Part shown: in pieces, positions 34,335 through 64,000 of the stretch
How positions within the stretch are numbered: position 1 is the stretch's first letter
Layout of the letters: each line of letters begins with the position of its first letter
DNA from: Saccopteryx bilineata
Lineage: Eukaryota > Chordata > Mammalia > Chiroptera > Emballonuridae
DNA: 64,000 nt
Reading direction: 5' to 3'
Assembly: GCF_036850765.1 (NCBI RefSeq)
Contig: NC_089496.1
Span: 105,421,767 to 105,485,766, forward strand
The notes under the pieces: generated by a model
Databases searched by the model: none
Seen by the model: the letters and a program-made list of their open reading frames with translations, nothing else
Told to the model about the DNA's origin: nothing
Made by a program: the position numbers and the translations under genes

Positions 34335-34440
34335 GTATTTGGAGATGGACAGACCAGCTCGCTAGCTCTGTGGCTGAGTATTTACCCCTCTGAATTTCAG
34401 TTAGTTCATCTGTAAAACAGGCATGCAGTAGGTTTCTTTC
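34335..34440 (+). repeat. MIR SINE fragment
   Basis: 'tagctctgtggctgagtatt', 'ctctgaatttcagttagttc', 'atctgtaaaacaggcatgca' follow MIR order. Its 3' part falls in the segment copied in inverse to 35655-35898. Confidence 0.6.
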
Positions 34441-34624
34441 TCCTTCTATGGGGAATCTTAGGTATCTGTAATCCGATGGTACGGTTTATAAAATCTTAGG
34501 AATATTGTCTATATTTTACTTACTTTTATATTTCCTTTCGAGCTTTTTCTGGTACACAGGATAGCAATAGATTTCCAGTTGGAGCCGCGCCCCTTGCCTC
34601 GTGATACAAGGAATCAGGAAGAAA
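34381..34624 (+). repeat. Segment A: source or partner of an inverted copy
   Basis: 244 bp whose reverse complement is found at 35655-35898 with two mismatches seen by eye. Similarity stops sharply at both ends. See the insert at 35548-35898. Confidence 0.93.
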
Positions 34625-35429
34625 CACTACACTTTCTCATCACTGTGATTACTAACTTGCTAAAGCATTTAAATTAATAGCAGACCCCAGGTCCCAATCC
34701 TTGATTCAATACAGGGATAAAGGGGCGCATATCCTAGTTATTTATGCTGTTATCTTGTTGCTTCTTTGGAGACGAAGCTAACTCTTGTTCATCTGCCTAC
34801 ATAACCCGCATTTGACACAGAATTTTCAGATATGCACACGCAAACTGTGCTGCCTGATGTAATGCATATTATCCCTTGTGGGGGGATAGGGAGAAGAAAA
34901 TACATGCATTTGCAAAAAAAATTAGAGTGTATCGGGGGGCAGTGGAAATATGGTCGTAGCACTCTGATTCTCATAAACGACAGTGTCTGCACCAACAATG
35001 TTGTTGCCTATTCAATAGCCACCCCGCCAGCACCTCCCTGCTGGAGGAGCCTGGGTCAGTGATGAACGGAGACCAAAAATGCCAGAAACCCCCTTCTATC
35101 TGCCCTTCTAACAGCCACAGGGCCAATTTGGGTCCAGAGACGTTAGGGGAAGTATCTTGAGGGTCTTCTCGGGAAGACCTTGCTCCCTGAGTCAGATGGG
35201 AGGAAGCTCACACTTCCTTCTGGACTTTTTGACTCGGATGATAGCAGAGGCACTAATTCGGTGTCCAGACACCACTGAGTTGCTTAGCAACCCCAATAAT
35301 CAACTCTTTCCAGAATTTCTATGTGGGGAAAAAAAACATAGTCCTTACAGTTTAAATTCCCTTTTGTCTGCTTTCCAGATGAAAAAAAGTCTCCTCCAAC
35401 CTAGGGGATACAGTCCATAATAGCATAAC
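34625..35429. other. Unique noncoding sequence
   Basis: Lies between segment A and the interrupted L1 3' end; nothing recognised. Confidence 0.4.
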
Positions 35430-35482
35430 AACTTTGTATCATGACAGATGGAAACGAGACACATTGTGGTGATCGTTTCGTA

Positions 35483-35483
<1 letters not shown>

Positions 35484-35522
<39 letters not shown>
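35484..35522. repeat. (GT)n microsatellite
   Basis: About 19 uninterrupted units, 25 bp left of the inverted insert. Confidence 0.97.
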
Positions 35523-35524
<2 letters not shown>

Positions 35525-35547
35525 TTATATATATTATCTATGGGGAA

Positions 35548-35896
35548 TCCTCCTGGGGGCCCCAGGGGGATGTGATTTCCTGCTAGCTGTACCCTGGAGG
35601 GTCATGCGGGAGCAGTGCATTTGGGAGGACTGAGAGAAGGTCAACTTTTTATCTTTTCTTCCTGATTCCTTATATCACGAGGCAAGGGGCGTGGCTCCAA
35701 CTGGAAATCTATTGCTATCCTGTGTACCAGAAAAAGCTCGAAAGGAAATATAAAAGTAAGTAAAATATAGACAATATTCCTAAGATTTTATAAACCGTAC
35801 CATCGGATTACAGATACCTAAGATTCCCCATAGAAGGAGAAAGAAACCTACTGCATGCCTGTTTTACAGATGAACTAACTGAAATTCAGAGGGGTA

Positions 35897-35898
<2 letters not shown>
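35548..35898 (-). repeat. 351-bp compound inverted insert joining copies of both flanks
   Basis: Its reverse complement is segment A (34381-34624) joined to segment B' (36130-36241). 35655-35898 matches A inverted and 35548-35659 matches B' inverted. The two matches overlap by five bases (35655-35659), i.e. the join has 5-bp microhomology. Mismatches by eye: two in 244 and two in 112. On the plus strand A and B' lie 1505 bp apart, and the insert sits inside that gap, in an old L1 3' end, between a (GT)n and a (TA)n array. No TSD, poly(A) or terminal repeat supports a transposon. Template switching during replication-based repair is the simplest idea; misassembly is possible. Confidence 0.92.

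Positions 35899-35949
<51 letters not shown>
35899..35949. repeat. (TA)n microsatellite
   Basis: About 25 TA units directly abutting the right end of the inverted insert. Confidence 0.97.
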
Positions 35950-35951
<2 letters not shown>

Positions 35952-36129
35952 AATCACTACAATGTATACCTGAAGCTAATAGGATGCTCTACCTATGCCA
36001 ATCATACTTCAATTAAAACGAAAAGCATCCTTTTAGGCGCCCCTCCCACCCTTCCACTCTTGCTTGGAGCCTTTGTGCTTCTCACTTTCTGTCCTGGTGT
36101 AACCCTGGCACACACAGTATACTGTCAAG

Positions 36130-36241
36130 AGAAAAGATAAAAAGTTGACCTTCTCTCAGTCCTCCCAAATGCACTGCTCCCGCATGACCCTGCAGGGTAC
36201 AGCTAGCAGGAAATCACATCCCCCTGGGACCCCCAGGAGGA
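36130..36241 (+). repeat. Segment B': partner of an inverted copy
   Basis: 112 bp whose reverse complement is at 35548-35659 with two mismatches by eye. Confidence 0.92.
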
Positions 36242-62190: not shown

Positions 62191-62892
62191 TGTAAAGCCA
62201 GTATCCACGGCCACCATCACAGCCTCCTGGCCCATGCAGGTTCGCATTAGATTTGGATAGATGGTAATGAAACAATGGAGCCAAGAACTGGTGGGCCATT
62301 ACCTTTAATCCTAGCTTGCACCGGGCGGGCAAGTAAAAACACACTGGTCTCCAAAACCCACTCATTCAGCACTCACAAAGCTACTGACTTATCCGAGTTT
62401 CCTAGCATCAAAGGGTTCTAGCTCACTAGCCTCATTCTCCTTTGTCCCCCATCTCCTTCTTTCTGCACAAACTCTGCACTAACTGGTTTCTCTTTCAGCA
62501 TTCCGCAATCTTGGCTGCTTCTCCTGGCCTCCTCCATGTGCCCTTTCTCTGCTCTCCTTTCTGCTCTCTCCTCTAATGCTAATCTCAGGAACCAAGAGAG
62601 AGCAAGCTCTCAGTCTGCCCCACTTTATAGTGTAGAAATCCAAACCCTTAATCCAATATACAAACAAGAAAGTCTCTGATACAAAGTCACTTATCTGAGG
62701 CATGCTGGGATTCCTCATGAGAGTGCACCACCCCACATCATGCAATCAGTCAAGGGTGTGGGGAAAAGCTTAGTCTTAAAACTAAGCCTTAGGCTATAAC
62801 CACCCTGCCTGCTTACAGCCTGTCCCCCACACCCAATACAAACTATAAGTGAGCAAACATATATATCAATTTACAAACTTATTTGACCAACA
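62191..62892 (-). repeat. 3' LTR (702 bp), TG...CA
   Basis: On the minus strand it runs from TGTTGG at 62892 to TTTACA at 62191. A TATA-like ATAAAG word lies at about 62623-62629 and an ATTAAA polyadenylation-type word at 62304-62309, so U3 would be about 265 bp and R-U5 the rest. A small palindrome (gagagc-aa-gctctc) lies just downstream of the TATA at 62598-62611. TATA and poly(A) roles are inference. Confidence 0.85.
62623..62629 (-). promoter_or_regulatory. Putative LTR TATA box
   Basis: Minus-strand CTATAAAGTG about 265 bp into the LTR; expected transcription start near 62595. Confidence 0.45.
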
Positions 62893-62907
62893 TTCCACCC
62901 CTTTTGC
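62893..62907 (-). other. Polypurine tract of the LTR element
   Basis: Minus strand reads gcaaaaggggtggaa immediately before the LTR start TGTTGG. This fixes the orientation of the element and its LTR boundary. Confidence 0.85.
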
Positions 62908-63141
62908 TCGCTTCACAATCTGAAGCACAGGTATTTCTGCACAAGGAAATTAGGCACATTACACAAATTACAACAGCACAAATCATACAGTTTCAACAAT
63001 TACAAAGGTACATTTCACCAGTCTCTGAGCACTTAGCCCAAAGTGCAAAATGTCCACGGCCTTCTTTCTAGCCATGGGAAAAGCTTCCCGGGGCAGGGGA
63101 GTGCTTCCAGGAAAGCCTCCCCCCACCCCCATCAGGGTATT

Positions 63142-63927
63142 TCACATTGGCCAAAATCTGTAAGTCCATCCAACAAAGGAGCCAGTGCTCACTCTGGTCG
63201 TAATCCAGGAATCAGTCCAAGCACATGGGGCCTCAGTCACCCCCATCATCCCTGCCATCCTGGCAGGTTTTACACTGTTCCAAAGAGGAGCACGTGGCAA
63301 TGCAGTCAGCATTTCCATCTCTGCTCTGGAGAGCATGATGGCACTCACCCTTATGTCCCAAAATTGCAGACCTACCAGGGGCATAGCAGGTACTCCTTGC
63401 TGTTGGGCTCTCACCTTCTGGAGACTGCGGATTGCAACTCCAGCCCGATTCTCCTCATCCTCCAAAGAGGAACTGAAAACACCAGCTCCCGCTGCCAGGC
63501 TCGAGCCCTGGGCTGCTGCAGCCTTCTGCTCCACTGGCCTTGCAGCCCTAGCTCTGGCCTCAGCCCCAGCCTCCCACCACTGCTGGCTCTCCACAGTGTC
63601 CAGGGAAATCTGCAACTCATGAACCTGTGAATCCTCCTCCAGCAACTGCTGTATTTCCAAGCAAATCTTGTGAACCAGGTCGGCCTCCTCCTCTGGTGCT
63701 TGCTCCAGCTCCTGGGTCGGCATCTCTTTCTCCCACATTTGCCCCAGTTCCTTCCACTTCTTGGTTTGCAGGTCCTGGGAAGCCTCTTCCACAGAGCTCT
63801 TGGTTTCCTCATGCATGGCTGTAAACATCAGCCAGCCTATAGCCCCCAAAAGGACAGCCATGGGGAACCATAACAGCAGCCAGTCCTCTACTCCACCACT
63901 CAAAGGTGGTGGTGGCTCCATACTCAT
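63142..63927 (-). CDS. Predicted membrane/coiled-coil protein of a nonautonomous LTR element
   Basis: Not recognised. The open frame extends upstream to a TTG at 63936; the first ATG is at 63927 (261 codons) and the next, at 63921, has the better context (A at -3, G at +4; 259 codons). Counting from the TTG codon, residues 6-17 are short and proline-rich (PPPPL). Residues about 18-41 are one hydrophobic segment (DWLLLWFPMAVLLGAIGWLM), so a single-pass membrane protein is likely. Residues about 45-110 are Glu/Gln/Leu-rich with heptad-like spacing, consistent with a coiled coil, and hold one Cys. 115-150 is Ala-rich. The rest is low in recognisable features. I see no Gag CCHC motif, protease DTG, RT box or Env features. 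It starts only 33 bases inside the 5' LTR, where gag would normally begin. It could be a captured host gene, a diverged gag/env piece or a chance frame. Confidence 0.5.
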   Translation of the reverse strand: MSMEPPPPLSGGVEDWLLLWFPMAVLLGAIGWLMFTAMHEETKSSVEEASQDLQTKKWKELGQMWEKEMPTQELEQAPEEEADLVHKICLEIQQLLEEDSQVHELQISLDTVESQQWWEAGAEARARAARPVEQKAAAAQGSSLAAGAGVFSSSLEDEENRAGVAIRSLQKVRAQQQGVPAMPLVGLQFWDIRVSAIMLSRAEMEMLTALPRAPLWNSVKPARMAGMMGVTEAPCAWTDSWITTRVSTGSFVGWTYRFWPM

Positions 63928-63959
63928 CTGTATCAAATCTTGCCACAGACTACGCCAAA

Positions 63960-64000
63960 TGTAAAGCCAGTAGCCACGGCCACCATCACAGCCGCCTGGC
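63960..64000 (-). repeat. 5' LTR, inner end only (cut by window edge)
   Basis: 41 bp matching 62191-62231 with two mismatches. Confidence 0.88.

What the first reader, a model, noticed from the sequence alone, without database searches (positions are those of the whole stretch)
62191..64000. Small LTR element whose only long frame encodes a membrane/coiled-coil protein instead of Gag-Pol
Seen: two LTR copies in the same orientation, TG/CA ends, a clear polypurine tract, 1067 bp internal sequence, and one frame of about 260 codons filling the gag position with a single hydrophobic segment followed by a heptad-rich acidic region. Known: nonautonomous LTR elements usually keep a decayed gag or no ORF. 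Inference: an open frame this long may be kept by selection during amplification, so the protein could help packaging in trans, anchor particles or RNA at a membrane, or interfere with a helper virus. N-terminal tail, one membrane pass and a coiled coil is the plan of restriction factors such as tetherin, but I see no sequence link to it.
Basis: partly seen in the sequence, partly recalled or inferred. Interest (0 to 1): 0.8.

Follow-up and report, generated by a model that had tools for sequence, protein, structure and literature searches.

The report
Bat LTR element with gag-position ORF
A short, pol-less endogenous retroviral element in a sac-winged bat keeps one open gene that seems to start inside its LTR, reads through the primer-binding site and would make a membrane-anchored helical protein; longer, younger relatives carry the same gene start on a gag-sized frame, so it looks like the retained front part of a Gag-position gene rather than a captured foreign one.

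Summary
The element is real and lies on the minus strand: 702-bp 3' LTR, polypurine tract, 1,067-bp internal part; only 41 bp of its 692-bp 5' LTR are in the window. The genome is taken as Saccopteryx bilineata. There are 1,346 LTR/PBS junctions at up to 3 mismatches. Target duplications are 5 bp in 16 of 26 scorable copies and the PBS fits tRNA-Ser: a class III/MaLR-like, pol-less family. The ORF is a real gene: frame integrity is kept in shared indels, and comparison with a divergent young family gives pN/pS 0.69 (bootstrap 0.54-0.88; other frames 1.07, 1.22). Within the main family N/S is about 1. The window copy's last ~50 codons are frameshifted. The young family has 5.5-kb LTR-to-LTR spacing (4 copies) and a 573-576 codon frame in 57 of 150 listed copies, 51 of them without a stop in the matched part. 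So the window ORF is most likely the N-terminal part of a Gag-position ORF. Start codon, capsid domain, integrase, expression and function are not shown. A tetherin link is unsupported.

The parts
62191..62892 (-). 3' LTR, 702 bp, TG...CA; CTATAAAG at LTR position 263, ATTAAA at 584, in-frame ATG at 594
62893..62905 (-). polypurine tract AAAAGGGGTGGAA directly before the 3' LTR
   Evidence: read from sequence
62893..63959 (-). internal part, 1,067 bp; one search scored 40 of 4,551 candidates (the window copy among them) at 86-100% identity, over 1,012 to 1,067 of its bases
63303..63957 (-). part of the ORF in the family frame, from the PBS to the 1-nt gap near internal position 657
63142..63302 (-). 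rest of the window copy's open frame, frameshifted against 52 of 54 other copies; low confidence in the AF2 model
63823..63879 (-). hydrophobic segment (residues 64-82 counted from the U5 ATG), likely membrane pass
63936..63957 (-). primer-binding site: 10 nt fitting a tRNA-Ser 3' end, 3 extra nt (TGT), then T-arm-like complement; lies inside the open frame
   Evidence: tRNA-Ser 3' end recalled
63960..64000 (-). end of the 5' LTR (41 of 692 bp); the rest is outside the window at C7:105485767-105486417

Best explanation
This is one copy of a large, pol-less, MaLR-like class III LTR family of Saccopteryx. Its single ORF is the retained N-terminal part of a Gag-position gene: it most likely starts at an ATG near the R/U5 border, runs through the tRNA-Ser PBS, and has a ~60-residue N-terminal tail, one membrane pass and an acidic helical stretch. 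Longer relatives (5.5 kb LTR to LTR, ~575-codon frame) carry a homologous ORF start and are candidate sources of enzymes. Likely mechanism: the LTR drives an RNA; a relative supplies reverse transcriptase and integrase in trans; the short membrane-anchored Gag-like N-terminus helps its own RNA reach or join the helper's particles. Shown: element anatomy, 5-bp duplications, family size, frame retention, between-family constraint, and the longer relatives with a gag-sized frame. Inferred: start codon, transcription, translation, membrane insertion, trans supply and the protein's role.
For: Two LTRs, PBS and PPT. 5-bp TSD in 16 of 26 scorable copies, no 4- or 6-bp match alone; control 1 of 650. 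1,346 LTR/PBS junctions, 0 in the reversed-pattern control. tRNA-Ser-like PBS in 368 places, 0 in control. Behind 60 of 60 fetched exact junctions (60 of the 100 listed of 1,346) lies this internal part: 54 cover it to position 380; of the other 6, five begin with it and are then interrupted, and L113 matches another copy of the family throughout. Beyond-chance sense ORF. Shared indels in frame. Between-family pN/pS 0.69, JC 0.59, bootstrap 0.54-0.88, frames +1 and +2 at 1.07 and 1.22. The U5 start is readable in L133, L134, L136 and L138 as well as in many main-family copies. Young family: 57 of 150 listed copies with a 573-576 codon frame, 51 of these without a stop in the matched part; LTR spacing 5,494-5,500 bp in 4 copies (arithmetic).
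Against: Within the main family shared variants show no amino-acid constraint (N:S 19:5 against 148:59 private; one threshold even gives excess N, 32:5 against 216:88, p=0.05). pN/pS is 0.95-1.09 in the first part and 1.8 in 425-650. Old copies L138 and L140 give 0.91-0.96 for U5+PBS+TM. The frame test weakens to p=0.10 without homopolymers, and a 1-nt deletion at 714, within the last codons and outside the counted range, is shared by 2 of 28 copies (4 of 54). Only the first 142 residues of the long frame were read; no capsid domain was tested. Among the 150 listed rve hits none lies in the same orientation within 12 kb of a listed young ORF. The ATG at internal 39 is present in only 18 of 54 copies, and any in-frame M in the upstream open stretch in 34 of 55, so the start is not proved.
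Confidence: 0.6

Rival explanations
1. The open frame is kept for the RNA, not for the protein: an open ORF from the LTR onward shields the element RNA from nonsense-mediated decay or is needed for packaging, while the amino-acid sequence hardly matters.
For: The frame is kept but shared amino-acid changes run at the neutral ratio inside the main family, and substitution density is the same in the ORF and in the 3' non-coding part (21.6 against 18.2 shared, 51.7 against 51.0 private alleles per 100 bp).
Against: Between families the ORF frame is constrained at the amino-acid level (0.69, bootstrap 0.54-0.88), and the hydrophobic segment is kept in 71 of 77 scorable copies (no neutral expectation was worked out for this).
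Confidence: 0.2
2. A gag remnant with no function: the deletion left the first part of gag, and copies simply inherit an open frame from a few source elements.
For: N/S near 1 within the family; stops and frameshifts occur in single copies; 34 of 54 copies are open over the first 130 codons.
Against: LTR pairs span K 0.032-0.170 in 36 scorable copies, so sources were active over a long time, yet no shared frameshift was counted in the ORF against 8 in the shorter 3' part (p=0.015; 0.10 without homopolymers). The PBS indel between families is a multiple of 3.
Confidence: 0.15
3. A trans-acting interference or restriction-like protein: a membrane-anchored coiled coil made against a helper virus.
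For: Membrane segment plus helix; the young member L134 shows a heptad signal, 32 of 1,000 shuffles.
Against: The same ORF start sits on a gag-length frame in the longer relatives; no sequence or fold link; no heptad signal in the window copy.
Confidence: 0.05

Closest known systems
ERVL-MaLR (THE1/MST/MLT)
   Same: Described as LTR elements of the ERV3 group whose internal part has one ORF for a putative gag and no env or pol (PMC10735291, passages seen); 5-bp duplications are recalled for that group and found here.
   Different: tRNA-Ser PBS, a frame that runs from the LTR through the PBS, a membrane segment, and younger LTR pairs; no sequence comparison with MaLR internal parts could be made.
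HERV-S / HERV-L (class III ERVs)
   Same: Class III; HERVS is grouped with HERVL and MaLR, and absence of zinc fingers in their Gag is noted (PMC4724089, passages seen). The Ser primer of HERV-S is recalled.
   Different: No pol seen here; relation untested by sequence.
Gammaretroviral glycosylated Gag
   Same: A Gag form predicted to have type II membrane topology (PMC3847932, whole short text seen) that initiates in the leader (PMC3423011, start of abstract in the listing).
   Different: There the start lies in the leader; here the frame begins in the LTR and the PBS is inside it. No sequence comparison made.
Foamy virus Env leader protein (Elp/LP)
   Same: About 60-residue cytoplasmic N-terminus, then one membrane segment, type II (PMC7828637, passages seen).
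   Different: Elp is part of Env and has a WxxW motif; here only WxxxW spacings are seen in the translations read, and the ORF sits at the gag position.
Tetherin (BST2)
   Same: N-terminal tail, one membrane pass and a helix (recalled plan).
   Different: No sequence or fold match; longer tail; retroviral gag position.

Membership tests
ERVL-MaLR / class III LTR element | 5-bp target-site duplication | tested here: met
   16 of 26 scorable copies exact 5 bp; control 1 of 650. The window copy itself has none that is exact
ERVL-MaLR / class III LTR element | single gag-position ORF and no pol or env in the short element | tested here: met
   1,067-bp internal part with one long sense frame and no Pfam match in it
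ERVL-MaLR / class III LTR element | sequence relation to ERVL gag or MaLR internal parts | not testable with these tools
   no repeat library at hand; no Pfam match over cut-off
Gag | first frame after the PBS in longer relatives, gag-sized | tested here: met
   573-576 codons in 57 of 150 listed young copies, 51 without a stop in the matched part
Gag | capsid domain | tested here: inconclusive
Autonomous helper of this family | long copy with reverse transcriptase and integrase | tested here: inconclusive
   0 of 60 fetched exact junctions; young 5.5-kb family found, but no same-orientation rve within 12 kb among 150 listed of 5,132 candidates; PF17921 search not answered
Tetherin-like restriction factor | sequence or fold match | tested here: not met
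   Pfam, PDB sequences and BFVD folds
Foamy virus Env leader | WxxW motif in the N-terminal tail | tested here: not met
   only WxxxW spacings in the translations read by eye

The most novel reading that the evidence does not exclude
A retroviral lineage in emballonurid bats evolved a membrane-anchored Gag N-terminus whose start codon lies in the LTR and whose coding frame includes the primer-binding site, so that tRNA priming and protein sequence are locked together (the PBS indel between families is a multiple of 3). Its pol-less offshoots amplified for many millions of years keeping only this part under selection, as a minimal packaging, targeting or interfering protein.
Probability: 0.3. 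Interest if true: 0.75.

Novelty: new variant of a known kind. Interest (0 to 1): 0.5.

Why it matters
MaLR-type elements are very abundant in mammals, yet why they keep a gag-like ORF is open. Here is a younger case in which the short form and longer relatives sit in one genome and the frame can be tested. An ORF that begins in the LTR and is translated through the PBS would also be an unusual way to start a Gag-position protein and would place a membrane anchor at its front.

Tried and rejected
Captured host gene: no support. Two protein searches found the same nine Saccopteryx predictions at E <= 10, and a search among longer proteins found one of them; in viral contigs 57 pattern matches were seen and none confirmed. 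Chance ORF: rejected for the sense strand. Antisense gene: the 197-codon antisense frame is matched by 91 of 2,000 shuffles of the ORF region. Known domain: none over cut-off (L134 has three Pfam hits below their cut-offs); PDB: two hits at E 0.5 and 0.78 for the window ORF, none for L134. Viral fold: none at E <= 0.001 among 27 listed, on a weak model (mean pLDDT 62.8, pTM 0.30). Helper behind the same PBS: none in 60 fetched. A PBS and an rve hit 9.6 kb apart on C3: the PBS belongs to an ordinary short copy (L128). Literature, listings only; in these seven listings I saw no paper that describes this family, which does not prove that none is in print.

Limits of the samples: PBS-sampled copies are exact matches to a 28-nt pattern, 60 of the 100 listed of 1,346, nearly all on two contigs; 6 of 60 were dropped for the alignment. 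DNA-sampled copies (28; L037 dropped for a nested copy) are the most similar to the window. Protein-sampled copies L040-L068 were left out of the within-family selection tests, but 3 of the 14 main-family copies (L046, L053, L059) come from that set; L135 (ORF lost) was dropped there. L086 and L034 are the same element by coordinates, so the pooled 82 hold one element twice. In one search a change was scored in several thresholds and frames, the other two frames scatter from 0.6 to 1.9; p-values are not corrected. One search counts 20-705 without 385-425, that is 645 bp of ORF. In one search the tool reads through stops inside the match, so 6 of the 57 gag-sized frames hold one stop.

Full report
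What is there. The element lies on the minus strand of the window. Its 3' LTR is 62191-62892 (702 bp, TG...CA), followed by the polypurine tract AAAAGGGGTGGAA (62893-62905) and a 1,067-bp internal part up to 63959; 41 bp of the 5' LTR are in the window. The genome that holds the window (G000, 2.61 Gb) shows the complete 5' LTR at C7:105485726-105486417, 90.5% identical to the 3' LTR; K for this pair is 0.076. G000 is taken to be Saccopteryx bilineata because four of its contig lengths equal those given for S. bilineata proteins. The window copy has no exact target duplication; CTATC on one side and CCATC, set off by one base, on the other are my reading.

Family. A 28-nt LTR-end/PBS pattern has 1,346 places with up to 3 mismatches and none for the reversed control. 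In 16 of 26 copies with both ends found the flanks repeat exactly 5 bp, as in class III/MaLR elements (recalled). LTR pairs of 36 scorable copies give K from 0.032 to 0.170, median 0.083; at an assumed 2.5e-9 substitutions per site and year (recalled order of magnitude) that is about 6-34 million years. A tRNA-Ser-like PBS pattern has 368 places, control 0 (tRNA recalled); copies such as L139 belong to the main family and lack the 3 extra bases that the window copy has in its PBS.

The ORF. The frame is open for 285 codons inside the window and goes on upstream into the 5' LTR; from an ATG near the R/U5 border it is 308 aa. 52 of 54 other copies have one more base at internal 657, only L049 and L052 share the gap, and the copies mostly end near internal 719-725, so the last ~50 codons of the window copy are frameshifted. 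No shuffle of 2,000 reached 240 sense codons; 79 did when both strands counted. In-frame ATGs: somewhere in the upstream open stretch in 34 of 55 copies (not always the same ATG), internal 39 in 18 of 54, internal 99 in 52 of 54, internal 144 in 54 of 54. The LTR start is readable in divergent relatives too, which is why I favour it, but it is not proved; a start at 99 or 144 would lose part or all of the membrane segment. That segment scores 1.6 or more in 71 of 77 scorable copies; 5 more have a stop in it. AF2 gives long helices with low overall confidence (pLDDT 62.8, pTM 0.30); residues 204-285 of the 285, which include the frameshifted part from about 233, are below 50. Heptad spacing is not better than shuffling in the window copy or in five relatives, but is in L134 (32 of 1,000).

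Is it under selection? Within the main family: pairwise pN/pS is 0.95 (54 PBS-sampled copies) and 1.09 (28 DNA-sampled) in the first part, 1.8 in 425-650, and 0.92-0.94 in the 3' part without ORF; the other two frames of the ORF part scatter from 0.6 to 1.9, so the measure is noisy. Shared variants show the neutral N:S ratio (19:5 against 148:59 private; at one threshold excess N, 32:5 against 216:88, p=0.05). Shared stops are 0 of 24 at eight or more copies and 2 of 76 at four or more, against 14 of 221 private variants; neither difference is significant. What is kept is the frame: indels shared by three or more PBS-sampled copies are multiples of three in 8 of 8 cases (3 of 3 outside an acidic repeat that itself tends to vary in such units) against 6 of 20 private ones. 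In the DNA-sampled copies no frameshift is shared in 645 counted bp of ORF against 8 in 296 bp of the 3' part, with 15 and 16 private ones (p=0.015; 0.10 without homopolymers); a 1-nt deletion at 714, in the last codons and outside the counted range, is shared by 2. Between families: 14 main-family copies against L133, L134 and L136 give 0.69 (JC 0.59; bootstrap 0.54-0.88; 0.1% of bootstraps at 1 or more), while frames +1 and +2 give 1.07 and 1.22. Against the old copies L138 and L140 the ratio is 0.96 (main) and 0.91 (young) for U5+PBS+TM and 0.68 and 0.64 after it.

Where it comes from. L133, L134 and L136 belong to a second family. The 40 best of 2,861 candidates match the L134 ORF part at 98-100%, the 100% being L134 itself, so it is young. 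A protein search with its first 142 residues lists 150 of 18,382 candidates; 57 of the 150 have a frame of 573-576 codons, 51 of these without a stop in the matched part. LTR-to-LTR spacing, from coordinates of the U5 search and the ORF places, is 5,494-5,500 bp in 4 copies, 6,189 in one and 13.6 kb in one; a same-strand pair of ORFs is 5,497 bp apart. In the main family a same-strand pair is 1,775 bp apart, about internal part plus one LTR. So the young family has roughly 5 kb of internal sequence (its LTR length was not measured) and a gag-sized first frame. I therefore read the window ORF as the N-terminal part of a Gag-position gene. Not shown: what lies after residue 142 of the long frame, and any integrase; among the 150 listed rve hits (of 5,132 candidates) two lie within 12 kb of a listed young ORF and both are in the opposite orientation.

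Comparison. MaLR elements are described as having one putative gag ORF and no pol or env (PMC10735291, passages); HERVS, HERVL and MaLR are grouped in class III (PMC4724089, passages). The tail-plus-membrane-pass plan recalls glycosylated Gag (PMC3847932, whole short text) and the foamy virus Env leader (PMC7828637, passages); these are resemblances of plan, not membership. The WxxW motif of the foamy leader was not seen.

Verdict. A real, partly misread observation: a pol-less LTR family of a known kind, with an unusual frame across LTR end and PBS and a membrane segment, and with longer relatives in the same genome that make the question testable.

Noticed in passing
window 34381-36241: Two near-perfect local inverted duplications (34381-34624 with 35655-35898, 99.2%; 35548-35659 with 36130-36241, 98.2%) that meet at 35655-35659 and abut TG and TA repeats; may be a recent template-switch rearrangement.
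   Followed up: no
P0008 (S. leptura) and P0007 (S. bilineata): NCBI-predicted proteins in which a piece of this ORF is joined to unrelated sequence; P0008 is named glycine cleavage system H protein-like and carries Pfam PF01597. Annotation artefacts or exonised copies.
   Followed up: no
L133, L134, L136 and the 150 places: A young LTR family in this genome with the same ORF start; 44 of 150 listed copies have the same frame length of 575, which suggests recent activity.
   Followed up: partly
main-family PBS (window 63936-63957): Three extra bases (TGT) inside the primer-binding site of the window copy and of the 100 listed exact places, while other related elements keep an uninterrupted tRNA-Ser fit; the frame is kept.
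   Followed up: partly
L074, L122, L037 and others: Copies of this LTR family are often found inserted in or next to one another.
   Followed up: no
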